Shown here in pieces: positions 11,524-23,844 of a DNA stretch of 39,097 bases. The DNA comes from Candidatus Methylomirabilota bacterium. GTDB taxonomy: Bacteria; Methylomirabilota; Methylomirabilia; Methylomirabilales; Methylomirabilaceae. The stretch is from NCBI GenBank assembly GCA_028870115.1, contig JAGWQH010000053.1, forward strand, positions 1 through 39,097, in the 5' to 3' direction. The notes beneath the pieces were generated by a model. That model saw nothing but the letters and a program-made list of their open reading frames with translations. It had not been told where the DNA came from and made no database searches. Numbering within the stretch: position 1 is the stretch's first letter; the number at the start of each line of letters is the position of its first letter. The translations under genes and the position numbers were made by a program.

Positions 11524-11588
11524 CGTTGTTCCATTCTTCATTGATCGTCTGTATCCTTGGTATGCTGAAGATACCCCGCGCACCAGTG

Positions 11589-11597
11589 ACTATAGCA
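11589..11597 (-). promoter_or_regulatory. Extended -10 promoter for the Mut7-C/fmt/rsmB transcript
   Basis: The minus strand reads TGCTATAGT, an extended -10 element, about 50 bp before the first ATG of the Mut7-C gene. The -35 region is weak. The leader contains an 8-bp inverted repeat (GGTATGCT at 11559-11566 and AGCATACC at 11594-11601). Confidence 0.4.
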
Positions 11598-11608
11598 TAC
11601 CAATAGGT

Positions 11609-11649
11609 CGAACCTTGACAAGTCCTCAGAAAGGCAGGAGAATCGGCGC
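11609..11649 (+). repeat. Left copy of an island-bracketing direct repeat
   Basis: This 41-bp sequence is about 80% identical to 23131-23170 in the same orientation, with one 1-bp gap and seven substitutions by eye. It contains TTGACA (11615-11620), a 17-bp spacer and GAGAAT, a promoter-like layout pointing to the downstream PIN toxin. The remainder of the gap 11524-11749 shows no gene. Confidence 0.65.
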
Positions 11650-11749
11650 GATACAACGCTGTGAGTCGGGAACTTCTCTGCGGAAAGCCCCGTTTTGGTA
11701 ATCGATACTGTGCGATGCGGCGAACTGTACCCACGTCACTGAGTGAACA

Positions 11750-12226
11750 ATGAGTGCGAGAGCCAAGGTCTACCTGGAGACAACCGTCGTGAGCCACCTC
11801 ACTGCGCGGCAGACCCGCGATCCGATCGTTGTTGCACACCAGACCGTAACGCGCCGATGGTGGAGGCACCGTAAGCGATTTGATCTCTATTGCTCGCATA
11901 TCGTCGTAAGGGAAGCGGGCGAGGGCGATCCCGACGCGGTCAAACGCCGATTTGCTGTGCTCAGGGGCGTGCCCGCTCTGGAGACCAACGACGCCGTCAA
12001 AGCGCTTGCGGCCGCAGTTGCGAAGGCAGCAGCCCTACCGAAGAAGGCTACCGAGGATGCGCTCCATATCGCGTTGGCGACGGTTCACGGCATGGACTAC
12101 CTGCTTACATGGAACTGCAAGCACATCGCGAATGCTGAGATTCGTAACGTGGTGGCCGCCGTGGCCTACAATCATGGGTACGGCGTCCCGGTCATCTGTA
12201 CCCCAGAAGAGCTTATGGGAGAGTAA
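11750..12226 (+). CDS. PIN-domain toxin of a type II toxin-antitoxin pair
   Basis: This 158-aa protein opens ARAKVYLETTVVSHLTAR, with the first acidic position of the PIN fold occupied by Glu (YLET). It continues with KKATEDALHIALATVHGMDYLLTWNCKHIANAE, which carries the conserved acidic residues and the TWNCKHIAN strand of this VapC-like subfamily. PIN toxins are metal-dependent RNases. Its partner follows after 3 bp, so the toxin comes first, the reverse of the usual vapBC order. The pair lies just inside the left island-bracketing repeat and ahead of the restriction-modification operon. Confidence 0.85.
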   Translation: MSARAKVYLETTVVSHLTARQTRDPIVVAHQTVTRRWWRHRKRFDLYCSHIVVREAGEGDPDAVKRRFAVLRGVPALETNDAVKALAAAVAKAAALPKKATEDALHIALATVHGMDYLLTWNCKHIANAEIRNVVAAVAYNHGYGVPVICTPEELMGE

Positions 12227-12229
12227 CCG

Positions 12230-12406
12230 ATGTGGAAAGATCCGATTGTCGAAGAAGTGCGACGTGTGCGCGAACGCCACGCCGCCAAGTACCGCTACGA
12301 CCTCGACGCCATCTGTCAGGCCCTCAAGGAGGAAGAACGGCGGAGCAGACGAAAGCTCGTTTCGCTGCCGCCGAAGAAGCCGCAGCCCTGGGCGAAGGCC
12401 GGCTGA
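12230..12406 (+). CDS. 58-aa antitoxin partner of the PIN toxin
   Basis: An ATG 3 bp after the toxin stop opens a 58-codon frame beginning MWKDPIVEEVRRVRERHA. It continues through a helical Lys/Arg/Glu-rich middle (DLDAICQALKEEERR) to a basic, proline-rich tail (VSLPPKKPQPWAKAG). This MWxDPIVxEVRRxR start followed by YDLDAIC is one I recognise from small proteins encoded directly after PIN toxins of this subfamily. The frame is shorter than usual gene-calling cutoffs and easily missed. It probably binds and silences the toxin and may regulate the pair. Confidence 0.8.
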   Translation: MWKDPIVEEVRRVRERHAAKYRYDLDAICQALKEEERRSRRKLVSLPPKKPQPWAKAG

Positions 12407-12550
12407 GTTGCGGTGGGGACGCCGACCTTGGCGCTCCAGGCGACAGTAAAATGAAGTGCTGTATCATCCGGCTGTGACTTGCCCTCGCAACCCCGTTAGG
12501 GGCCTCTCAGTCGCTCGCCGACGTACAACATCGCTGACAAGGACCAGACT

Positions 12551-14122
12551 ATGATTACCGGTGACATCAAGAGCCAGGTCGATCGTATCTGGGATTCGTT
12601 CTGGTCGGGCGGCATCTCCAATCCGCTGGAGGTGATCGAGCAGATTACCTACCTGCTGTTCATCCGCAGGCTCGACGACCTGCACACGCTGGAGGAGAAC
12701 AAGTCCGCCCGGCTCAAAAAGCCGATGGAGCGGCGAGTGTTCCCGGAAGGCAAGGGCCCCAGGGGCCGCGCGTACGAGGACTTTCGCTGGTCCCGCTTCA
12801 AGCACTTCGCGCCAGCCGAGATGTACACCGTGGTCAGTGAGCATGTCTTCCCCTGGCTCCGCACCCTCGGCGGCAACGGGTCCACGTATTCCCACCACAT
12901 GAAGGATGCGCGTTTCACCATCCCCACGCCCGCGCTCCTGGCCAGGGTGGTGGACATGCTCGACCACGTCCCGATGGAGGAGCGCGACACTAAGGGCGAC
13001 GTCTACGAGTACATGCTCGGTAAGATCGCCGCCGCCGGGCAGAACGGCCAGTTCCGGACGCCGCGCCACATCATCCGACTGATGGTTGAGCTGACGGCGC
13101 CGCAGCCCACCGACGTGATCTGCGACCCGGCCTGCGGGACGGCGGGCTTCCTTGTCGCGACAGGCGAGTACCTGCGCGAGCGCCACCCGAACCTTCTGCA
13201 CAACGCGACGCTCAGGGAGCACTTCCACCATCGTATGTTTCACGGCTTTGACTTCGATAACACGATGCTGCGCATCGGCAGCATGAACATGCTGCTGCAC
13301 GGCGTGGAGAACCCGGACATCCGCTACCGCGACTCGCTGGCGCAGGACCACGCGGGTGAGGAGGAGAAGTACACGCTGGTTCTGGCCAATCCGCCCTTCG
13401 CCGGCAGCCTCGACTACGAGAACACCGCCAAGGACCTGCTGCAGATCGTCAAGACCAAGCAGACGGAGTTGCTCTTCGTCGCGCTGTTCCTGCGGCTCTT
13501 GAAGCCGGGCGGCCGCGCCGCGGTGATCGTGCCCGACGGCGTGCTCTTCGGCTCCAGCAAGGCGCACAAGGAGCTGCGCCGCATTCTGGTGGAAGAGCAG
13601 AAGCTCGATGCCGTGGTGTCGTTGCCCGGCGGCGTCTTCAAGCCGTACGCGGGCGTCTCCACCGCGATCCTTATCTTCACTAAGACCAACTCCGGCGGTA
13701 CCGACTACGTCTGGTTCTACGACGTCGAGGCCGATGGTTGGAGCCTCGACGACAAGCGCACGCCGCTCCTACCCGAGGAGAAACTCGGCCCTGTACCGCG
13801 CACGCCGCTCAGCGAAGAAGAATACAGCAAGAACAACCTGCCCGATGTGCTGACGCGCTGGCGCACTCTTCATCCCCTCGCCCCCGTGGAGGGAGAGGGT
13901 CAGGGTGAGGGGGAATTGAAACGCCCCCGTACCGCACAGAGCTTCTGCGTACCCAAGGCTGACATCATTGCGTACGGCTACGACCTTTCGCTCAACCGCT
14001 ACAAGGAGGTGGTGCATGAGGAGGTCGAGCATCGCGCACCAAAGGCGATCCTGGCCGACCTCGCGAAGCTGGAGGAAGAGATTCAGCGGGGGATGAAGGA
14101 GTTGGAGGGGATGGTGGGATGA
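12551..14122 (+). CDS. hsdM: Type I restriction-modification DNA methyltransferase subunit
   Basis: This 523-aa protein is the adenine-N6 methylase subunit. It has an N-terminal HsdM helical domain (about residues 1-140, LEVIEQITYLLFIRRLDD), the S-adenosylmethionine motif DPACGTAGF (192-200) and the catalytic NPPF (280-283). AAGGA precedes the ATG by 8 nt. It overlaps hsdS by 4 bp, so M and S are probably translated together. A run of EGEGQGEGE near residues 445-455 is encoded by a palindromic GC-rich element inserted in frame. The 144-bp gap before it (12407-12550) shows no gene. Confidence 0.95.
   Translation: MITGDIKSQVDRIWDSFWSGGISNPLEVIEQITYLLFIRRLDDLHTLEENKSARLKKPMERRVFPEGKGPRGRAYEDFRWSRFKHFAPAEMYTVVSEHVFPWLRTLGGNGSTYSHHMKDARFTIPTPALLARVVDMLDHVPMEERDTKGDVYEYMLGKIAAAGQNGQFRTPRHIIRLMVELTAPQPTDVICDPACGTAGFLVATGEYLRERHPNLLHNATLREHFHHRMFHGFDFDNTMLRIGSMNMLLHGVENPDIRYRDSLAQDHAGEEEKYTLVLANPPFAGSLDYENTAKDLLQIVKTKQTELLFVALFLRLLKPGGRAAVIVPDGVLFGSSKAHKELRRILVEEQKLDAVVSLPGGVFKPYAGVSTAILIFTKTNSGGTDYVWFYDVEADGWSLDDKRTPLLPEEKLGPVPRTPLSEEEYSKNNLPDVLTRWRTLHPLAPVEGEGQGEGELKRPRTAQSFCVPKADIIAYGYDLSLNRYKEVVHEEVEHRAPKAILADLAKLEEEIQRGMKELEGMVG
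13874..13912. repeat. Palindromic repeat embedded in frame in hsdM
   Basis: CCCCTCGCCC (13874-13883) faces GGGTGAGGGG (13903-13912), nearly complementary around a 19-nt loop that contains GGGAGAGGGTCAGG. It resembles the dispersed CCCTCACCCT...AGGGTGAGGG palindromes that are common between genes in many bacteria, but here it is read as protein (LAPVEGEGQGEGEL). Confidence 0.6.
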
Positions 14123-15300
14123 TCACGCCAGCGTCGGTTGCAGTTGGCGATATGGTGGCACCTGTTTCATCTTGGACTCCTGAGCGAGATAATCCTGATG
14201 GGTCCTTTACCTATATTGACCTTAGTGCCGTTGATCAGGACAGTAAGGTGATCACCAGTGCACGTGAACTTCTGGGCCGACAAGCTCCGAGCAGAGCGCG
14301 GCAAATCGTGAGGTCTGGCGACGTCCTCGTATCCACTGTACGACCGAACTTGAATGGAGTTGCGCGTGTCCCACCGGAGCTTGACGGTGCAACAGCTTCA
14401 ACCGGATTTTGCGTTCTTCGCCCGCATGCCGAGAAGTTGGACGGTGGGTATTTGTTTCACTGGGTTAGGTCTCCACGCTTCATCGGCGATATGGTCAGGA
14501 GAGCGACGGGTGCCAGCTACCCCGCTATTAGCGATCGAATCATCCTTGATTCGAAGCTGCCGGCATTACCCCTCCACGAGCAGCGGCGGATTGCGGAGAT
14601 CCTGGACAAGGCGGACGCGCTGCGGGCCAAGCGCCGCGCCGCCCTCGCCCAACTCGACACCCTCACCCAATCCATCTTTCTCGACATGTTCGGCGACCCC
14701 GCCACGAACCCAAAGGGGTGGCCTGTTCGGAGGATTGGTGCCCTTCTTGAATCGGCATGCTATGGAACAAGCGAAAGGGCGGAGGCGAATGGCGAGTTCC
14801 CGGTGCTGAGGATGAACAATATCACGCGCACCGGCGAGATAGATTTCACGGACATGAAGTACATGGACTTGAAGGAGAGCCAACGTGAGCGCTACCTGGT
14901 ACGAACTGGTGACGTACTGTTCAATCGGACCAATAGTGCCGAACTGGTAGGTAAGACCGCGATCTTCCGCGCGACACAACCGATGGCCTACGCAGGCTAC
15001 CTGATCCGCTTGCGGATGAACCGCGACAACGATCCCGAGTACCTCTCTGCCTTTCTCAACACTGGATACACCAAGCGTGTGCTTCGCGGGATGTGCAAGA
15101 GCATCATTGGCATGGCGAATATCAACGCGACGGAGCTTCAGGCGATCACGATTCCCGAGCCGCCCTTCGTAAGCCAACGCGAGTTCGCACGTCGAGTGTT
15201 AGCCGTCGAGTCGCTGAAACGCACCCATCGAGCTTCGCTGACTGAACTTAATTTCCTCTTCGCCTCCCTCCAACACCGCGCCTTCCAGGGGGAGTTGTAG
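14119..15300 (+). CDS. hsdS: Type I restriction-modification specificity subunit
   Basis: This 393-aa protein sets the DNA target of the M and R subunits. It has two target-recognition domains (about residues 10-150 and 200-360), each followed by a conserved helix: LHEQRRIAEILDKADALRAKRRAALAQ... links them, and a second helix closes the protein. VRSGDVLVSTVRPN and VRTGDVLFNRTNS are the repeated strands of the two domains. It overlaps hsdM by 4 bp. The recognition sequence cannot be read from the protein. It ends 3 bp before fic. Confidence 0.93.
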   Translation: MITPASVAVGDMVAPVSSWTPERDNPDGSFTYIDLSAVDQDSKVITSARELLGRQAPSRARQIVRSGDVLVSTVRPNLNGVARVPPELDGATASTGFCVLRPHAEKLDGGYLFHWVRSPRFIGDMVRRATGASYPAISDRIILDSKLPALPLHEQRRIAEILDKADALRAKRRAALAQLDTLTQSIFLDMFGDPATNPKGWPVRRIGALLESACYGTSERAEANGEFPVLRMNNITRTGEIDFTDMKYMDLKESQRERYLVRTGDVLFNRTNSAELVGKTAIFRATQPMAYAGYLIRLRMNRDNDPEYLSAFLNTGYTKRVLRGMCKSIIGMANINATELQAITIPEPPFVSQREFARRVLAVESLKRTHRASLTELNFLFASLQHRAFQGEL

Positions 15301-15303
15301 CCC

Positions 15304-16353
15304 ATGCTCTTCGCTCCCCGCTTCACGATCACGAACCCGATCACGGCCTCGCTCACGGCCATTGAGCGGGCGCGCGGTTTTCTGGAGGCGGCGACGCTCT
15401 CGGAAGCGTGGATCGCGCGCATGAGCCAGCGCGCTCTGCTGCTGGAAGCGCATCATACGACACATATCGAGGGCACCCAACTCACGCTCGAACAGGCGGA
15501 GCGATTGTGGGCCGGCCAAGCGGTGAAGGAGGCGAGCAGGGACGATGTCCGCGAGCTGCTCAACTACCGCGAGGCATTCAACTTGGTCTCGGACTACCTG
15601 GGGAGCGGCGAGCCGATGACAGAAGGCTTGATCCGCGAGATTCACAAGCGGCTGGTCAAGGGCGTCCGCGGCGGCGCGGCCGATCCCGGCCGCTACCGCG
15701 CTACCCAGAACTACGTCGTCAACAGCCGGACGCGCGAGGTGATCTACACGCCGCCTCCCCCGGAGCAGGTGCCGCCGCTGATGCGCGAGCTTGTGGAATG
15801 GTTGCGCGCGGATACCGGTGTGCACCCGGTACTGGTGTCCGGCATCGCGCAGTTCCAGCTTGTGCACATCCATCCGTTCGTGGACGGCAACGGCCGGACG
15901 TCGCGGCTGCTCTCTACGCTCTGCCTGTACCGCACGGGCTACGACTTCAAGCGTCTGTTCACGTTGAGCGAGTTCTACGACCGCGATCGGAGCCCGTTCT
16001 ACGCTGCGCTGCAGTTGGTGCGCGAGCAGGATATGGATCTTACCGGCTGGCTGGAGTATTTCGTCGAAGGTCTCGCCACACAAATGAGCGAGGTTAAGCA
16101 GCGCGGCGTACTGGCGATCCGCCGCGACGTCCTCGTTCGTGAGCATGGCCTGAACGAGCGGCAGGCCGTGGCCGTGGAGGTGATGCTGGAGCATGGCGAC
16201 CTCGGGATTGAGGAGTTCGAGGCGCTCACTCCAGGAGTCCACCGCCGCACGCTTCAGCGCGATCTGAAGGGTCTGGTCGAGACAGGCATTGCGACCACTT
16301 ACGGCGCAGCGCGGGCGGTCCGTTATCACCTCAAAAAGAGATACTTACGATGA
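15304..16353 (+). CDS. fic: Fic-domain protein (probable AMP transferase) inside the hsd operon
   Basis: This 349-aa protein carries the intact Fic motif HPFVDGNGR at residues 190-198, including the catalytic His190, so it should transfer AMP (or a related group) from a nucleotide to target proteins. An N-terminal inhibitory helix motif TTHIEG (T52 to G57) fits (S/T)xxxE(G/N) of class II Fic proteins, which are self-inhibited. The C-terminal part (about 270-345) looks like a winged-helix DNA-binding domain. It starts 3 bp after hsdS and ends ahead of hsdR, so it is part of the operon. Its target is unknown; whether it regulates the restriction system is inference. Confidence 0.92.
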
Positions 16354-16363
16354 ATCGTGGCAG

Positions 16364-16407
16364 TATCGCGACACGGATTGCGACAGTATCGCGACGGCTA
16401 TCGCGAC
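16364..16407 (+). repeat. Three TATCGCGAC repeats between fic and hsdR
   Basis: TATCGCGAC occurs exactly at 16364-16372, 16387-16395 and 16399-16407 in the short space between fic and hsdR. Each contains the palindrome TCGCGA. The first two are embedded in longer matching CAGTATCGCGAC units. The copies could be an operator, perhaps for the winged-helix part of the Fic protein, or a repeat remnant. Confidence 0.7.
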
Positions 16408-16447
16408 AGGCGTAAGGCTTTTCAAGGTACAAATCGGCAGGAGCGGG

Positions 16448-19400
16448 ATGACGGTGACCATGAGCCAGTTCGCCTTTATCGAGCGCGAATGGTCGGCGGT
16501 CTTTGACGCGGCGGCGAGGGCCGAGGCCGCCGTCGATGCCGACCCGCGCACGGCGTGCTTCTATGCCCGTCGGGCACTCGAACTGGCCGTGAGCTGGGCC
16601 TACAAGCACGATGCGGCACTCAAGCTGCCCTATCAGGACAACCTCGCCGCACTGATCCACGAACCGAGCTTCAAGCAGACGGCGGGCGAGGCGGTGTTCA
16701 GCAAGGCGCGGGTGATCAACACGCTCGGCAACCGCGCCGTGCACAGCCATCGCGCCATCCCCACGGAAGACGCGCTGGCCGCGTTGCGCGAGCTGTTCCA
16801 CGTGGCCTATTGGTTCGCCCGCACCTACGGAAGGATAGGGCGTCCCGCGCCAGGACTCGCCTTCGATGCGGCAGCACTGCCCAAAGTCCCGCCGTCACCG
16901 CAGCAGACCCCCGAGCAGTTGCGGACGCTGGAGGCGAGCCTACGCGAGCGGGACGAAAAGCTTGCGGCGATACTCGCGGACAGGGGCGCCCTCGACGAGG
17001 AACTGAAGCGCCTCCGCGCCGAGGTGGCCAAGATCAAGCTGGTTGCCACCGCCCAGGCGGATACCCACGACTACTCCGAGGCCGAGACCCGCGACTACTT
17101 CATCAACCTGCTGCTCAAGGAGGCGGGCTGGCCGCTCAGCCAGCCGCGCGACCGCGAGTTCGAAGTCAGCGGCATGCCCAATACAGAGGGCAAGGGCTTT
17201 GTAGACTACGTGCTGTGGGGTGACGACGGCAAGCCGCTGGGCCTCGTCGAAGCCAAGCGAACGCGACGCGACGCGCGCGTCGGCCAGCAGCAAGCCAAGC
17301 TCTACGCGGACTGCCTGGAGCAACAGTTCGGTCAGCGGCCGCTTATCTTTTACTCCAACGGTTACGAGCACTGGCTCTGGGATGATACCCGGTACCCGCC
17401 GCGCCAGGTGCAGGGCTTCTACAAGAAGGCGGAGCTGGAGCTCCTGGTCCAGCGTCGCGGGACGCGCCGGCTGCTGGCAGAGGCTGCCATCGACCCGGCC
17501 ATCGTCGAGCGCCACTATCAGACCCGTGGTATTCGCCGCATCGCGGAAAGCTTCGAGCGCGACCATGACCGCAAGGCGCTGCTTGTGATGGCTACCGGCG
17601 CGGGCAAGACGCGCACAGTGATTGCCCTGTGTGACCTCCTGATGCGCTGCAACTGGGTCAAGCGCGTGCTGTTCCTCGCCGACCGCGTGGCGCTTGTCAA
17701 TCAGGCGGTGAATGCCTTCAAGCGCCACCTGCCGGACGCCTCGCCGGTCAATCTCGTCACCGAGAAGGACGGCGAGGGACGGGTGTTCGTGTCGACCTAC
17801 CCGACGATGATGGGCCTTGTCGACGAGACCCGTGACGGTCAGCGGCGCTTCGGCGTCGGTCATTTCGATCTCGTCATCATCGACGAGGCGCACCGCTCGG
17901 TGTTCCAGAAGTACCGCGCTATCTTCGACTACTTCGACTCACTGCTGGTGGGCCTGACGGCCACGCCCAAGGACGAGGTGGACCGCAACACGTATCGGCT
18001 ATTCGACCTTGAGGATGGGGTACCGACTGACGCCTACTCGCTGGAGGAGGCGGTGCGCGACGGTTTTCTGGTTCCGCCAAAGGCCGTGTCGGTGCCGCTC
18101 AAGTTCCAGCGCGAAGGGATTAAGTACGACGACCTGTCCGAGGAGGACAAAGACCAGTGGGATGCCCTGGAGTGGGATGAAGGCGGTAACGTGCCCGACC
18201 GAGTCGAGGCCGAGGCGGTCAACAAGTGGCTGTTCAACAAAGACACTGTGGACAAGGTGCTGGCGCACCTGATGACCCAGGGTCTTGCCGTGGCGGGTGG
18301 CGATCGGCTCGGCAAGACGATCATCTTCGCCAAGAACCAGGATCACGCCGAGTTCATCGGTGAGCGCTTCAACGCCAACTACCCGCACTTCAAGGGGGAG
18401 TTCGCCCGAGTCATCACCTTCAAGACCGAGTATGCGCAGAACCTGATTGACAACTTCTCAGCCAAGGACAAGGTACCGCATGTCGCCATCTCGGTGGATA
18501 TGCTCGATACCGGCATCGACATCCCCGAGGTCGTGAATCTGGTGTTCTTCAAGTTGGTGCGCTCGAAGACCAAGTTCTGGCAGATGGTGGGCCGTGGCAC
18601 GCGACTATGCCCGGACCTGTTCGGGCCGGGTCAGGACAAGCAGTTCTTCTATCTCTTCGACTACTGTCAAAACCTCGAGTACTTCAGTCAGGACGTTCCG
18701 ACGACGGAGGGCGCACTGGTCGAATCCCTTGGCAAGCGGCTGTTCAATGCGCGCCTTGAGTTGATCGCGGAACTCGACAAGCGCCCTGACGACGTCGAAC
18801 GAGATCTGGCCCAGGATCTCTCGGCCTTATACCGTACCACGGGGACCAGCCGCGAGGTGCGGCAGGCCACCGCCGACCTGCTCCACGGCGAGGTTGCGGC
18901 GATGAACCTCGACAACTTTGTGGTCCGCCCGCGGCGGCGCCTGGTCGAGAAGTACGCCAGGCCGGACGCCTGGACGTCGCTGCCGCCGGAGGCGGTGGCC
19001 GAGCTGTCGCGTGAGGTCGCCGGGCTTCCCTCGGAACTCGACCCGGAGAATGAAGAGGCGAAACGCTTCGACCTGTTGCTCCTGAGCCTCCAGCTCGTGC
19101 TGCTGCGCTCCGAACCCGGCTTTCAACGGCTACGTGACCGGGTCAAGGAAATCGCTGGGCTGCTGGAGGAGAAATCGGCCATCCCGATGGTGCGGGAGCA
19201 GATGGCATTCATCCAGGACGTGCAAAGCGACGAGTGGTGGCAGGACGTCACCGTCCCGGTGCTCGAAGTCGTACGCCGCCGGTTACGGAATCTGGTACAA
19301 CTGATCGAGAAGCAACAACGTAAACTTATTTATACGGACTTCGAGGACGTCATGGGCAGCGAGATCAACATCGACCTGCCCGGTGTCGCAGTAGGCACGG

Positions 19401-19873
19401 ACTACGCCAGGTTCCTCGCCAAGGCGCGGGCTTTCCTGCGGGGGCACCTCGACCACGTCGCCATCTACAAGCTGCGCATGAATAAGCCGCTCACCGCGAC
19501 CGATCTTGGTGAACTCGAACGCATGCTCGCTGAAAGCGGGCTGGGCGAAGCCGAGGATATTCGCCGCGCCGCGGTAGAGTCGCAGGGACTCGGCCTGTTC
19601 GTGCGTTCACTCATCGGGCTGGATCGCGGAGCAGCCAAAGATGCCATGGCGAGCTTCATCAGCGGCAAAACGCTCTCAGCGAACCAGATCGAGTTCATCA
19701 ACCTGGTCGTGGATCACTTGACGGAGCACGGTATCGTTGAACCTAGCGCGCTGTACGAGTCGCCGTTCACCGATCTGACGCCGCGAGGTCCGGATGGACT
19801 GTTCAGCCCGGTTCACCTCGACGAACTGATGCGTGTACTGGAGGCCGTTCGAGCAACAGCAAAGGCGGCGTGA
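16448..19873 (+). CDS. hsdR: Type I restriction endonuclease, motor and nuclease subunit
   Basis: This 1141-aa subunit translocates and cleaves unmethylated DNA. In order it has a DUF4145-like N-terminal domain (about 15-115), a PD-(D/E)xK nuclease with D253 and E268-A-K270 (GFVDYVL... GLVEAKRT), a helicase with Walker A ATGAGKT (382-388) and DEAH (479-482), a second RecA domain (VGRGTR near 715), and an EcoEI-type C terminus. The frame is open upstream to 16289, but that overlaps fic and runs through the repeats. The ATG at 16448 has AGGAG four nt before it; the ATG at 16460 is an alternative. No break is seen, so the nuclease looks intact. Confidence 0.95.
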   Translation: MTVTMSQFAFIEREWSAVFDAAARAEAAVDADPRTACFYARRALELAVSWAYKHDAALKLPYQDNLAALIHEPSFKQTAGEAVFSKARVINTLGNRAVHSHRAIPTEDALAALRELFHVAYWFARTYGRIGRPAPGLAFDAAALPKVPPSPQQTPEQLRTLEASLRERDEKLAAILADRGALDEELKRLRAEVAKIKLVATAQADTHDYSEAETRDYFINLLLKEAGWPLSQPRDREFEVSGMPNTEGKGFVDYVLWGDDGKPLGLVEAKRTRRDARVGQQQAKLYADCLEQQFGQRPLIFYSNGYEHWLWDDTRYPPRQVQGFYKKAELELLVQRRGTRRLLAEAAIDPAIVERHYQTRGIRRIAESFERDHDRKALLVMATGAGKTRTVIALCDLLMRCNWVKRVLFLADRVALVNQAVNAFKRHLPDASPVNLVTEKDGEGRVFVSTYPTMMGLVDETRDGQRRFGVGHFDLVIIDEAHRSVFQKYRAIFDYFDSLLVGLTATPKDEVDRNTYRLFDLEDGVPTDAYSLEEAVRDGFLVPPKAVSVPLKFQREGIKYDDLSEEDKDQWDALEWDEGGNVPDRVEAEAVNKWLFNKDTVDKVLAHLMTQGLAVAGGDRLGKTIIFAKNQDHAEFIGERFNANYPHFKGEFARVITFKTEYAQNLIDNFSAKDKVPHVAISVDMLDTGIDIPEVVNLVFFKLVRSKTKFWQMVGRGTRLCPDLFGPGQDKQFFYLFDYCQNLEYFSQDVPTTEGALVESLGKRLFNARLELIAELDKRPDDVERDLAQDLSALYRTTGTSREVRQATADLLHGEVAAMNLDNFVVRPRRRLVEKYARPDAWTSLPPEAVAELSREVAGLPSELDPENEEAKRFDLLLLSLQLVLLRSEPGFQRLRDRVKEIAGLLEEKSAIPMVREQMAFIQDVQSDEWWQDVTVPVLEVVRRRLRNLVQLIEKQQRKLIYTDFEDVMGSEINIDLPGVAVGTDYARFLAKARAFLRGHLDHVAIYKLRMNKPLTATDLGELERMLAESGLGEAEDIRRAAVESQGLGLFVRSLIGLDRGAAKDAMASFISGKTLSANQIEFINLVVDHLTEHGIVEPSALYESPFTDLTPRGPDGLFSPVHLDELMRVLEAVRATAKAA

Positions 19874-19904
19874 TGCGGGGAAGAGAGATGCCCAATAAGC
19901 GGCC

Positions 19905-19958
19905 GCAGCAGACGGTCGTCTACGGGAGCACGCTCGTGCATCCGCCCGCTGCTGACCC
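19905..19958 (+). repeat. Left copy of a 54-bp repeat bracketing the CopG/PIN module
   Basis: This stretch matches 20776-20829 at 45 of 54 positions without gaps, in direct orientation. It lies 31 bp after hsdR. The gap 19874-20020 has no gene. Confidence 0.7.
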
Positions 19959-19984
19959 GCAGCCCCGTTGAGCCGATCCTCTCA

Positions 19985-20013
19985 TTGACACTACAGTCGA
20001 GTTGTCCTACAGT
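19985..20013 (+). promoter_or_regulatory. Promoter and likely operator of the CopG/PIN pair
   Basis: TTGACA (19985-19990) is followed after 17 bp by TACAGT (20008-20013). The antitoxin ATG is at 20021, so transcription would start at or next to it, giving a leaderless or nearly leaderless message. CTACAGT is repeated at 19991-19997 and 20007-20013, one copy overlapping the -10, as expected for a ribbon-helix-helix operator. Confidence 0.6.
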
Positions 20014-20020
20014 GTATGAC

Positions 20021-20242
20021 ATGAAGACAAGCAGCCTCACAATCAGACTCGACAAAGATCTGGACGACCTGTTAACCAAGGCGAGTCGTCGGTCAGGAAA
20101 AAATCGGAGCGAGGTCGCCCGAGAGGCCCTTCGTCGCCAGCTTCGGATCAGCCAGTTTGAAGCGCTGCGGCGCAAGATCATGCCTTTTGCGGAGGCGCGA
20201 GGCTACCTGACAGACGAAGACGTGTTCGCCGAGGTGTCGTGA
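20021..20242 (+). CDS. CopG-type ribbon-helix-helix antitoxin
   Basis: From ATG at 20021 the product is 73 aa. The N-terminal strand SSLTIRLDKDLDDLL and helices ASRRSGKNRSEVAREALRRQL make a ribbon-helix-helix DNA-binding domain (about residues 3-48). The C-terminal tail (YLTDEDVFAEVS) would bind the toxin. An upstream in-frame start at 19985 would begin inside the promoter and is unlikely. It overlaps the PIN toxin by 4 bp. It probably represses its own promoter together with the toxin. Confidence 0.9.
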   Translation: MKTSSLTIRLDKDLDDLLTKASRRSGKNRSEVAREALRRQLRISQFEALRRKIMPFAEARGYLTDEDVFAEVS

Positions 20243-20682
20243 GGGTTTTCCTCGATACCAATGTTCTGGCCAGCGCAGCGGCAACTCGCGGACTGTGCGC
20301 AGACGTACTACGCGAGGTACTGACGTCGCATGAACTCCTGACGTCCGCACGAGTACTGAGCGAACTGAGGCGTGTCTTGCGGATCAAGTTCGGTATCGCG
20401 CAGGATTTGATTGCTGATTTTATCGGACTGTTGCGGCAAGACACCGTGCTTGGACAGCCCGGCAGGCTCCCGACGGTTGACATCGAAGATCAGGATGATC
20501 TGCTCATTCTATCGGCTGCGATATCGGCTGGAGCAGATCTGTTCGTGACAGATGATCAGGAGCTTCTGGATATCGGCCACATCGAGGATCTGACGATTCT
20601 CTCTCCAAGGCAGTTCTGGGAGAAACTGAAGGCCCCATTACAGCGTGGAGCCGGACGCGGCAAAGTACGCCGACTACGTTAA
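20239..20682 (+). CDS. PIN-family toxin
   Basis: This 147-aa PIN-domain RNase starts at GTG within the antitoxin stop (4-bp overlap). The first acidic residue is in VFLDTNVLASA. The later acidic cluster is VDIEDQDDLLILSAAISAGADLFVTDDQELLDI, with DDLLILSAA and TDDQ as the conserved strands of the 'putative toxin-antitoxin system toxin component, PIN family'. The basic tail (RGAGRGKVRRLR) may bind RNA. It forms a module with the CopG antitoxin that is bracketed by similar 54-bp repeats. Confidence 0.9.
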   Translation: MRVFLDTNVLASAAATRGLCADVLREVLTSHELLTSARVLSELRRVLRIKFGIAQDLIADFIGLLRQDTVLGQPGRLPTVDIEDQDDLLILSAAISAGADLFVTDDQELLDIGHIEDLTILSPRQFWEKLKAPLQRGAGRGKVRRLR

Positions 20683-20775
20683 GCCGATAGCGCGGATGCT
20701 TTACGCCGCGCCATTGGTGTTGCGGATTACCACTTGCTTTTTGTCCGGCGCCTTCGCGACGGCCATCAACTGACT

Positions 20776-20829
20776 GCAGGAGGCGGTCGTCCACGTGAGC
20801 CCGCTCGTGCGTCTGCCTGCCGCTGACCC
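20776..20829 (+). repeat. Right copy of the 54-bp repeat bracketing the CopG/PIN module
   Basis: See 19905-19958 for the partner copy (83% identity by eye). It lies between the PIN toxin and the NO reductase gene. The surrounding gap 20683-20920 has no gene I can support, though minus-strand frames run through it. Confidence 0.7.
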
Positions 20830-20920
20830 ATTCGAAAGACGACTGCATTCGCGTGTTGATCCGACAGGGCGTCTTCTCTGGCCTTTCGGAAGGCCGCGAC
20901 ATGAGCCAAAGGAGCAATCA

Positions 20921-23113
20921 ATGAAAGCGAACCCCGATGGGCTTTCCCCTTGGTGGCGGTACGCGCTCGTTATCACGTTGATTGTTGGACTGAGTGTCTT
21001 GATCTGGCTGGCGGTACGTACCTATCAGTTCGCGCCGCCGATTCCGGACAAGGTGACCGGTCCTGGCGGCGTGATCGTCATGACGGGCGAAGACATCCGG
21101 GCCGGGCAGGAAGTGTTCTTGAGGTACGGCCTGATGGAAAACGGCTCCGTCTGGGGGCATGGGGCATACCTGGGGCCAGATTTTTCGGCGGAATATCTGC
21201 ACGCATTGGCGGTCGCAGCAGGGCCGGCGTTGAAGCGGAATCGCTATGACGCGCAGACCGGAACATTAACGTTTACGGAGGCGGAGGCGGCTACGTTCGA
21301 GAGCCAGGTGGCGAGGTGGACAGCGTACTTCGCCGAGCCGACAGGCAACGTAGGGCTGCCAGCCGGATACATCACCGACCCGGCGGAGTTGCGACAACTC
21401 ACTGCCTTCTTTGCGTGGACGGCGTGGGCGTCCGTTGCCAATCGGCCCAATAAGTCCTACTCGTACACAAACAACTTTCCGTACGAACCGCTGAGCGGGA
21501 ATACGCTGACAGCCGACGCAATTCTGTGGAGTGCGCTGAGCCTGATCGCATTGTTGGCAGGGATCGCGGGGGTGCTGTTTGCGTTCGGTAAGTTTGACTT
21601 CCTCGGTTGGAAGGGTGGGAGCGGGCACGTACATCCCACGATGTTGCCGGGTGTAGCTTCGGACAGTCAGCGGGCGACGATCAAGCTCTTTGCGATGGTC
21701 GCGCTCCTGTTTCTGGCGCAGGTGATCGTTGGCGCCGCGACCGCGCATTACCGGGCTGAGCCCGGTAAGTTCTACGGTATCGACCTGGCACAGGTTGCGC
21801 CGAGTCACATCATGCGGACATGGCATTTGCAGTTGGCGATCTTCTGGATTGCGACCGCCTACGTGGCGGGCGGACTGTTCCTGGCAGCGGCGCTAGGCAA
21901 CCGCGAGGTACGCGGGCAGGTGCCGGGCATCAATCTACTGTTTATCGCGCTGGTGGTGGTCGTAGCCGGCAGCTTGTTGGGCGAGTGGCTGGGGGTGAAG
22001 CAGGTGTTCGGCTCGCTGTGGTTTTGGTTTGGGCATCAAGGCTGGGAATATCTGGACCTGGGGCGGGCGTGGCAGATCATGCTGGTCATCGGGCTGGTGC
22101 TGTGGCTGGTGTTGTTGGTGCGCGCCATGGCCCCGGCGCGGCAGAACCCGAAACAGCGCCAGGTCGTATCGCTGTTTCAGTATGCCGCCCTCGCGATTCC
22201 GCTCTTTTACCTGCCGGCAATGTTCTTCGGCAGTACCACCCACTTATCGGTTGTGGACCACTGGCGGTTCTGGATCGTCCACCTCTGGGTCGAAGGATTC
22301 CTGGAGTTATTCGTGACGGTGATGGTGGCGCTGATCTTCTTGGAGTTGGGCGTCATGTCGCATGCGAACGTGGCGCGTGTCGTCTATCTTGACGCGATCC
22401 TGTACCTTGGCAGCGGCATCATCGGGACCGGACATCATTGGTACTGGACCGGTCAGACGACCATTACGATGGCCCTGTCGGCGGTGTTTTCGGCCATGGA
22501 GGTCGTTCCGCTGACGTTGCTGACACTGGACGCGTGGGACTTTATCAAGCTGACTCGGAGCCAGTGCGGCGTGTGTGAGCTGCCGGTGTCGTTGCCGCAT
22601 AAGTGGACGTTCTACTTCCTGATGGCGGTTGGCTTCTGGAATTTCGTCGGCGCCGGTGTATTTGGTTTCCTCATCAATCTGCCGGTCGTCAGTTTCTATG
22701 AGGTCGGCACGATCCTGACATCGAACCACGGGCATACGGCGATGATGGGAGTGTTCGGGATGCTGGGGTTAGCGCTGATGGTGATTGCGTTCCGGCAGGT
22801 GCTGGATGAGCAGCAGTGGCAACGCGTGGAGAAGTTCGTGCGCGTATCGTTCTGGGGTCTGAACATCGGCCTGGCGATGATGGTGATACTGAGCCTCTTC
22901 CCCGGTGGCGTCTTGCAACTATGGGATGTGTTGACCAACGGTTACTGGCATGCACGCGGTCCGGAGTTCATGAACCAACCGTTCGTACGCCTGCTCGAAT
23001 GGCTGCGCCTTCCTGGGGACGCCGTGTTTATCGTATTCGGCGCCGCGCCGATGGCGCTGGCGGCGGTCCTGACCTGGAGATTCACGCACGCGAACAGCAG
23101 ACGTCAGCCATGA
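20921..23113 (+). CDS. norZ: Quinol-dependent nitric oxide reductase (qNOR)
   Basis: This 730-aa membrane enzyme reduces 2 NO to N2O with electrons from quinol. It has an N-terminal helix, a periplasmic cytochrome-c-like fold without heme motif (about 40-200), then a NorB-like bundle of about 12 helices. Aligned to Geobacillus qNOR, the FeB ligands are H454, H505 and H506 (508, 559, 560) and the glutamates E458 and E527 (512, 581), with identical spacing. The quinol-site residues H276, E280 and F284 (328, 332, 336) are also kept. NO dismutases of NC10 bacteria lack several of these. ATG at 20921 follows AGGAG by 6 nt; the frame is open upstream but has no other good start. A CGVC pair (549-552) is unusual. 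Confidence 0.93.
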   Translation: MKANPDGLSPWWRYALVITLIVGLSVLIWLAVRTYQFAPPIPDKVTGPGGVIVMTGEDIRAGQEVFLRYGLMENGSVWGHGAYLGPDFSAEYLHALAVAAGPALKRNRYDAQTGTLTFTEAEAATFESQVARWTAYFAEPTGNVGLPAGYITDPAELRQLTAFFAWTAWASVANRPNKSYSYTNNFPYEPLSGNTLTADAILWSALSLIALLAGIAGVLFAFGKFDFLGWKGGSGHVHPTMLPGVASDSQRATIKLFAMVALLFLAQVIVGAATAHYRAEPGKFYGIDLAQVAPSHIMRTWHLQLAIFWIATAYVAGGLFLAAALGNREVRGQVPGINLLFIALVVVVAGSLLGEWLGVKQVFGSLWFWFGHQGWEYLDLGRAWQIMLVIGLVLWLVLLVRAMAPARQNPKQRQVVSLFQYAALAIPLFYLPAMFFGSTTHLSVVDHWRFWIVHLWVEGFLELFVTVMVALIFLELGVMSHANVARVVYLDAILYLGSGIIGTGHHWYWTGQTTITMALSAVFSAMEVVPLTLLTLDAWDFIKLTRSQCGVCELPVSLPHKWTFYFLMAVGFWNFVGAGVFGFLINLPVVSFYEVGTILTSNHGHTAMMGVFGMLGLALMVIAFRQVLDEQQWQRVEKFVRVSFWGLNIGLAMMVILSLFPGGVLQLWDVLTNGYWHARGPEFMNQPFVRLLEWLRLPGDAVFIVFGAAPMALAAVLTWRFTHANSRRQP

Positions 23114-23170: not shown

Positions 23171-23310
23171 AGTTGTCAAACGTTTCGGATAGTGATATGC
23201 GGGTCAGTATACTCAATAATTAGGCATCGGTTCCACGTGTACGGTGTACGCTTTGGATGCTATGACAAGATGTGTTACTGGACTGTGATTACTTCAACGA
23301 GGAGCGAACT

Positions 23311-23844
23311 ATGAGGCTGAAATACTTGACCGTGGGTGCTGTCGCCAGTCTTCTTCTGCTAGGCTCGTTTCAGGCGGCCTTAGCGACGGATATCGTTGAT
23401 TTACTTTTTGAAATCAATACCAAGGACGAAGATAAAGACAAAGGCGAACCGATCAATTTTCAGATCCTTAAGGACGATAAAATTGTCGTCTACGATTCCA
23501 ACTGGATCTTTGGCAACTGGACGTTGAAACCGAATTCGTACAACTATAAGAGGGCGCCTTGGGGGGGAGCCAAGATCATTGTTCCCATTACAACCGACGA
23601 CTGCTCTAAGCTGAAATTGCGCGTCGAAAAAATGGGCGACAACAGTTGGAAAGCCACCTTTCAGGTCCGGGCTAATGACAAACAGCTCACACTGTTGAGT
23701 GAGACGCCTATCGTTCAGTTTGGCAAGGGCCATCCGATCCTCGCTGAAAAGCCTGAGGGTGCGGGAGACGCAAAGGTTACGCACTGGAACGGTGGGAACG
23801 TCCATATCTTCGCATTTAACTGCCCACCACCGGAAAAGAAATGA
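23311..23844 (+). CDS. Secreted protein of unknown function
   Basis: From ATG at 23311 (AGGAG six nt upstream) the product is 177 aa. It begins with a clear signal peptide (MRLKYLTVGAVASLLLLGSFQAALA, shown here in full only because it is the cleavage landmark; cut after ALA). The mature part is rich in beta-strand residues and Lys/Asp, with a charged DEDKDKGEP stretch, two cysteines (DDCSKL and FNCPPP) and a short lysine tail. I recognise no domain. The codon use is more AT-rich than in the neighbours. It sits between the NO reductase and pheT, just outside the right repeat, so it may be part of the accessory region. Confidence 0.8.
   Translation: MRLKYLTVGAVASLLLLGSFQAALATDIVDLLFEINTKDEDKDKGEPINFQILKDDKIVVYDSNWIFGNWTLKPNSYNYKRAPWGGAKIIVPITTDDCSKLKLRVEKMGDNSWKATFQVRANDKQLTLLSETPIVQFGKGHPILAEKPEGAGDAKVTHWNGGNVHIFAFNCPPPEKK

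What the first reader, a model, noticed from the sequence alone, without database searches (positions are those of the whole stretch)
20921..23113. NO reductase in an apparent NC10 genome keeps the full canonical site, so it is not a NO dismutase
In Candidatus Methylomirabilis, altered qNORs (Nod) are proposed to dismutate NO to N2 and O2; they lack some FeB and quinol-site residues, notably having Asn at the second of the paired histidines. Here H454, E458, H505, H506 and E527 keep the spacing of Geobacillus H508, E512, H559, H560 and E581, and H276, E280 and F284 match quinol residues 328, 332 and 336. The enzyme can therefore be read as a true N2O-forming qNOR. It sits in an accessory island beside restriction and toxin genes, and has the oddities GTGHHWYW and CGVC (549-552).
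Basis: partly seen in the sequence, partly recalled or inferred. Interest (0 to 1): 0.68.

Follow-up and report, generated by a model that had tools for sequence, protein, structure and literature searches.

The report
Ordinary NO reductase beside NO dismutases
This gene makes a normal nitric-oxide reductase (NO to N2O) in a Methylomirabilis bacterium that also carries the proposed oxygen-making NO dismutases elsewhere; the pairing is already known, but the reductase belongs to a branch with an apparently undescribed, co-conserved Cys-x-x-Cys / His-x-His motif that may bind a metal at the enzyme's cytoplasmic face.

Summary
The 730-aa qNOR at 20921-23113 keeps H454, E458, H505, H506 and E527 of the FeB site, and H276, E280, F284 and D700 of the quinol site, at the Geobacillus positions. 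A tree puts it with 11 same-genus qNORs (support 100), apart from the Nod clade. The genome itself also holds two Nod genes, cut by contig ends, with the H-to-N and E-to-Q signature, next to pmoA and nirS. It is the orthologue of the known M. oxyfera qNOR DAMO_1889, so the finding is correct but already described (PMC3413370, PMC6094997). Two side claims change: the qNOR is a core gene beside a variable restriction/toxin slot, not part of an island; and the 'oddities' are clade features. CxxC (549-552) is found in 62 of 90 clade members and co-varies with H236-x-H238: both 53, neither 28, CxxC only 9, HxH only 0, beyond phylogeny. The two loops are the same elements that bind inhibitory zinc in Neisseria qNOR. 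A built-in Cys2His2 metal site is a fair, untested hypothesis.

The parts
20910..20914 (+). ribosome-binding site AGGAG of the qNOR gene
   Evidence: within a block conserved directly upstream of the ATG in nearly all 12 genus members
20921..23113 (+). qNOR (NorB/NorZ-type quinol-dependent NO reductase), 730 aa
   Evidence: Pfam NorB_cytochrome_c-like + COX1; PDB 3ayf 1.7e-154; tree; fold search TM 0.9
21626..21634 (+). codons H236-V-H238: HxH motif in the loop after TMH II (putative metal ligands)
   Evidence: co-varies with CxxC, H236 ranks first of 489 variable columns
21746..21772 (+). codons H276, E280, F284: quinol-site residues (Geobacillus 328, 332, 336)
   Evidence: alignment to 3ayf
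22280..22294 (+). codons H454 (FeB ligand) and E458 (catalytic Glu)
   Evidence: alignment to 3ayf H508/E512
22433..22438 (+). codons H505-H506: paired FeB histidines (Nod has H-N)
   Evidence: own Nod piece reads SHNFYW
22499..22501 (+). codon E527 (Geobacillus E581; Nod has Q)
   Evidence: own Nod piece reads STMQVLPL
22565..22576 (+). codons C549-G-V-C552: CxxC in an insertion of the loop between TMH X and XI, absent from the Geobacillus and Alcaligenes qNOR sequences
23018..23020 (+). codon D700 (quinol-site Asp746 of Geobacillus)
23272..23844 (+). 190-aa protein of unknown family with an apparent signal peptide, near the qNOR gene in 7 of 11 relatives

Best explanation
The gene encodes a canonical quinol-dependent NO reductase, the vertically inherited Methylomirabilis orthologue of DAMO_1889. 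By homology it takes electrons from membrane quinol at the H276/E280/D700 site, passes them through haem b to the haem b3-FeB site (H454, H505, H506, with E458 and E527), and reduces 2 NO to N2O with protons from the cytoplasm. In this cell it most likely removes surplus NO made by NirS, while two separate Nod proteins carry the proposed NO dismutation that feeds O2 to methane monooxygenase. Shown here: sequence, phylogeny, gene content and context. Inferred from homology: activity, direction, physiological role.
For: All FeB, haem and quinol residues identical to Geobacillus qNOR. Tree: 12 Methylomirabilis qNORs form one clade (SH-aLRT 100) inside an 87-row qNOR clade (100); the 8 full-length Nods form another (100). 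Two Nod genes in the same genome: the N-terminal piece on C92 is nearest the first Nod of relatives, the C-terminal piece on C95 nearest the second. pmoA lies on the C92 contig and nirS on C95. The reported M. oxyfera situation is the same: one canonical qNOR, expressed in low amounts, plus two Nods (PMC3413370; PMC6094997).
Against: No activity data for this protein or any close relative. The nearest solved enzymes are only 38-39% identical. N2O reductase was not found, but the control was silent, so its absence is not shown.
Confidence: 0.93

Rival explanations
1. The protein is a NO dismutase, or an intermediate form with dismutase activity.
For: It comes from a genus in which Nod is found and shares the qNOR fold with Nod (33-34% identity).
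Against: None of the Nod substitutions is present: HH not HN, E not Q, quinol residues H/E/F/D instead of E/G/A-S-Y/G. The tree separates it from Nod with full support. Genuine Nod genes exist elsewhere in the genome.
Confidence: 0.02
2. The qNOR is a recent horizontal arrival in the restriction/toxin island.
For: It lies 0.24 kb downstream of a PIN/RHH toxin-antitoxin pair and a type I restriction operon.
Against: Orthologues at 85-91% identity occur in 11 of 14 other genus genomes. The qNOR clade of the genus is monophyletic. The Mut7-C/fmt/rsmB side is conserved in 8 of 11 relatives, with 0.27-9.3 kb of variable DNA between it and the qNOR.
Confidence: 0.04
3. The CxxC / HxH pair is a thiol redox or structural feature without metal, or the co-variation only reflects shared ancestry.
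For: AlphaFold gives low confidence in both loops (pLDDT about 55-70), even with an alignment of only CxxC+HxH sequences. Nine of 62 CxxC proteins lack HxH. The 90 sequences were gathered by pattern searches and are not an even sample.
Against: HxH never occurs without CxxC (0 of 28). Dependent evolution beats independent evolution (LR 36.5, 4 df, p about 2e-7), and 0 of 5000 simulations on the tree reach the observed phi of 0.80. Independent pairs: about 6 same way, 0 opposite (median p 0.03).
Confidence: 0.45

Closest known systems
qNOR DAMO_1889 of Ca. Methylomirabilis oxyfera (and mela_0936 of Ca. M. lanthanidiphila)
   Same: Same family and same genus-level clade; about 90% identity to the G025 copy, taken to be M. 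oxyfera; complete canonical site; coexists with two Nods.
   Different: Ordinary species-level divergence (CGVC here, CDAC in G025); different filling of the neighbouring variable slot.
Geobacillus stearothermophilus qNOR (3ayf)
   Same: All catalytic, haem and quinol residues; fold TM 0.9.
   Different: 38% identity; lacks the CxxC-bearing loop insertion and the HxH motif.
Alcaligenes xylosoxidans and Neisseria meningitidis qNORs (8bgw, 6l3h, 6l1x)
   Same: Fold and active site. Zn1 of the Neisseria crystal (His257, Glu573, Glu576, His577) joins the same two cytoplasmic elements that carry HxH and CxxC here (PMC7201271).
   Different: There zinc is an added inhibitor and the ligands are different residues; no CxxC or HxH in the Alcaligenes loops, and no Cys among the Neisseria ligands.
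Putative NO dismutase Nod (DAMO_2434, DAMO_2437)
   Same: Homologous fold; present in the same genome.
   Different: FeB His to Asn, Glu581 to Gln, quinol site lost; separate clade.

Membership tests
qNOR (quinol-dependent NO reductase) | three FeB histidines and the conserved glutamates (Gs H508, H559, H560, E512, E581) | tested here: met
   window H454, H505, H506, E458, E527
qNOR (quinol-dependent NO reductase) | haem b / b3 histidines | tested here: met
   H302, H603, H605 aligned with Geobacillus and Alcaligenes
qNOR (quinol-dependent NO reductase) | quinol-site residues (Gs H328, E332, F336, D746) | tested here: met
   H276, E280, F284, D700
qNOR (quinol-dependent NO reductase) | fused N-terminal cytochrome c-like domain without haem c | tested here: met
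   Pfam PF22085 hit; only cysteines are 549 and 552, so no CxxCH there
qNOR (quinol-dependent NO reductase) | NO to N2O activity with quinol | not testable with these tools
   needs the protein
Nod (putative NO dismutase) | second FeB histidine replaced by Asn | tested here: not met
   H506; genus Nods and own C95 piece have N
Nod (putative NO dismutase) | Glu581 replaced by Gln | tested here: not met
   E527; own C95 piece has Q
Nod (putative NO dismutase) | loss of the quinol site | tested here: not met
   H/E/F/D kept; genus Nods have E/G/A-S-Y/G
Nod (putative NO dismutase) | falls in the Nod clade | tested here: not met
Cys2His2 metal-binding subgroup of qNOR (hypothesis) | CxxC and HxH conserved together | tested here: met
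   53 both, 28 neither, 9 CxxC only, 0 HxH only; beyond phylogeny
Cys2His2 metal-binding subgroup of qNOR (hypothesis) | the four ligands within bonding distance | tested here: inconclusive
   low pLDDT in both loops, no coordinates returned
Cys2His2 metal-binding subgroup of qNOR (hypothesis) | bound metal | not testable with these tools
   needs metal analysis

The most novel reading that the evidence does not exclude
Many GTGHHWY[WF] qNORs, this one included, carry an undescribed Cys2His2 metal site (H236, H238, C549, C552) on the cytoplasmic face. It joins the TMH II-III loop to the TMH X-XI loop at the mouth of the proton channel and near the dimer interface, where added zinc inhibits Neisseria qNOR and contributes to breaking its dimer. 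It could be a structural clamp for the dimer or a metal or thiol switch on proton entry.
Probability: 0.45. Interest if true: 0.55.

Novelty: new member of a known kind. Interest (0 to 1): 0.36.

Why it matters
It confirms that Methylomirabilis genomes keep a true NO reductase beside the proposed NO dismutases, so NO-derived N2O and O2 can have separate sources in one cell, and annotation by 'qNOR-like' alone would mix them up. The added result, a co-conserved CxxC/HxH pair in a broad qNOR branch with no solved structure, gives a concrete, cheap test of whether some qNORs carry an extra metal at the proton entry or dimer contact. Proteins of this branch are also called cbb3-type oxidase subunits in plasmid records.

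Tried and rejected
NCBIfam gave no name for the protein even at E 10. N2O reductase search: nothing found, but the positive control was also silent, so no conclusion. Viral contigs hold no relative. Sampling more phyla by the genome search is not possible from a locus handle. Upstream alignment shows no shared regulator site beyond the ribosome-binding site. Two AlphaFold models (wide alignment; CxxC+HxH-only alignment) leave both loops at low confidence, so they neither support nor exclude the metal site. Considered and rejected: Nod membership, horizontal arrival with the island, frameshift or wrong start.

Full report
Observation. The ORF is at the stated place. The ATG at 20921 is the likely start: a ribosome-binding site directly upstream is conserved in nearly all 12 genus members, and the complete-genome relative has a stop codon right before it. 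The haem ligands are also in place. The only two cysteines are 549 and 552.

What it is. PDB sequence search gives qNOR 3ayf at 1.7e-154, and the AlphaFold model (pTM 0.89) matches all solved qNORs at TM 0.84-0.91. A 100-row tree places the protein with 11 same-genus orthologues (support 100). That group lies inside an 87-row clade of qNORs from Desulfobacterota, Acidobacteriota, Pseudomonadota and others (support 100). The eight full-length Methylomirabilis Nods form a different clade (support 100). The Geobacillus and Alcaligenes rows sit on long branches, so their exact places are unsure, but the Nod/qNOR split does not depend on them.

Nod in the same genome. The own genome (2.8 Mb, 122 contigs) has two more pieces of this superfamily, both cut by contig ends. 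C95 opens with SHNFYW...STMQVLPL, the Asn and Gln signature described for Nod by Ettwig et al. (PMC3413370). It is about 95% identical to the second Nod of relatives against about 86% to the first. The C92 piece is nearest the first Nod. So two Nod genes are likely, as in relatives, with the middle lost in assembly. pmoA is on C92 and nirS on C95, the same order as in the complete genome G025. The published account of M. oxyfera (DAMO_1889 a genuine qNOR expressed in low amounts; DAMO_2434 and 2437 as Nods, highly expressed) therefore covers this case.

Context. In 8 of 11 genus relatives the Mut7-C RNase gene (with fmt, rsmB and a PASTA-domain gene behind it) lies on the same side of the qNOR as here, with a slot of 0.27 to 9.3 kb in between. 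In the window the slot holds a type I restriction operon (hsdM, hsdS, Fic, hsdR) and an RHH/PIN toxin-antitoxin pair. In G025 the same slot holds the pair, a Fic gene and only short remnants of hsdR and hsdM. The qNOR is the core gene and the slot is the accessory part. A 190-aa protein with an apparent signal peptide (23272-23844) stays near the qNOR in 7 of 11 relatives.

The 'oddities'. GTGHHWY[WF] (G or A before the HH) is the clade's normal sequence; because one of the search patterns held HHWYWTGQ, the sample is enriched for it. CxxC lies in a loop insertion that Geobacillus and Alcaligenes qNORs lack. It is present in all 12 genus members and in 62 of 90 clade members. Scanning all 489 variable columns, the column most strongly linked to CxxC is H236 (phi 0.70), two residues before H238 in the loop after TMH II. 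Taken as motifs: both 53, neither 28, CxxC only 9, HxH only 0. With the two loops left out of the tree, a dependent model beats an independent one by LR 36.5 (4 df, p about 2e-7), none of 5000 independent simulations reaches the observed association, and independent pairs agree (about 6 to 0, median p 0.03).

Why this could be a metal site. Two Cys and two His on two cytoplasmic loops is a common zinc-binding set. In the Neisseria qNOR crystal an added zinc (Zn1) near the water-channel entry and the dimer-stabilising TMII is held by His257, Glu573, Glu576 and His577, and zinc abolishes activity (PMC7201271). By the constant offset of 36 at the FeB and Glu residues, 573, 576 and 577 correspond to window 537, 540 and 541, two to three helical turns before CxxC; His257 lies in the same loop as HxH (inferred, since the Neisseria sequence was not aligned here). 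So the two elements can come within metal-bridging distance in a qNOR. Neither AlphaFold model resolves the loops (pLDDT about 55-70), though both show a small bridge pair at 548/555 around CxxC. No paper found in the held library describes such a site; the library lacks most subscription journals. The site is a hypothesis at about 0.45.

Verdict. The extra value is the clade-wide CxxC/HxH pair.

Noticed in passing
window 11584-20920: Variable slot (0.27-9.3 kb in nine genomes) between a Mut7-C RNase gene and the qNOR, here filled by hsdM-hsdS-Fic-hsdR and an RHH/PIN pair; the complete genome G025 keeps only short remnants of hsdR (91 aa) and hsdM (43 aa) with Fic and the pair.
   Followed up: partly
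window 23272-23844: 190-aa protein of unknown family with an apparent signal peptide, near the qNOR gene in 7 of 11 relatives (71-86% identity).
   Followed up: partly
L140, L141, L142, L143 (plasmid records): RefSeq names qNORs of this type 'cbb3-type cytochrome c oxidase subunit I', and no NCBIfam model matches the window protein: a recurrent misannotation.
   Followed up: partly
G031:C12:39835-40323: Second, broken copy of the qNOR N-terminus (79% identity, two stops) in one relative.
   Followed up: no
L005 1-995 and L006 1-757: Two Nod genes of the own genome cut by contig ends, probably an assembly collapse of a tandem pair.
   Followed up: yes
window 15304-16353: Fic-domain gene inside the type I restriction operon, between hsdS and hsdR.
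   Followed up: no
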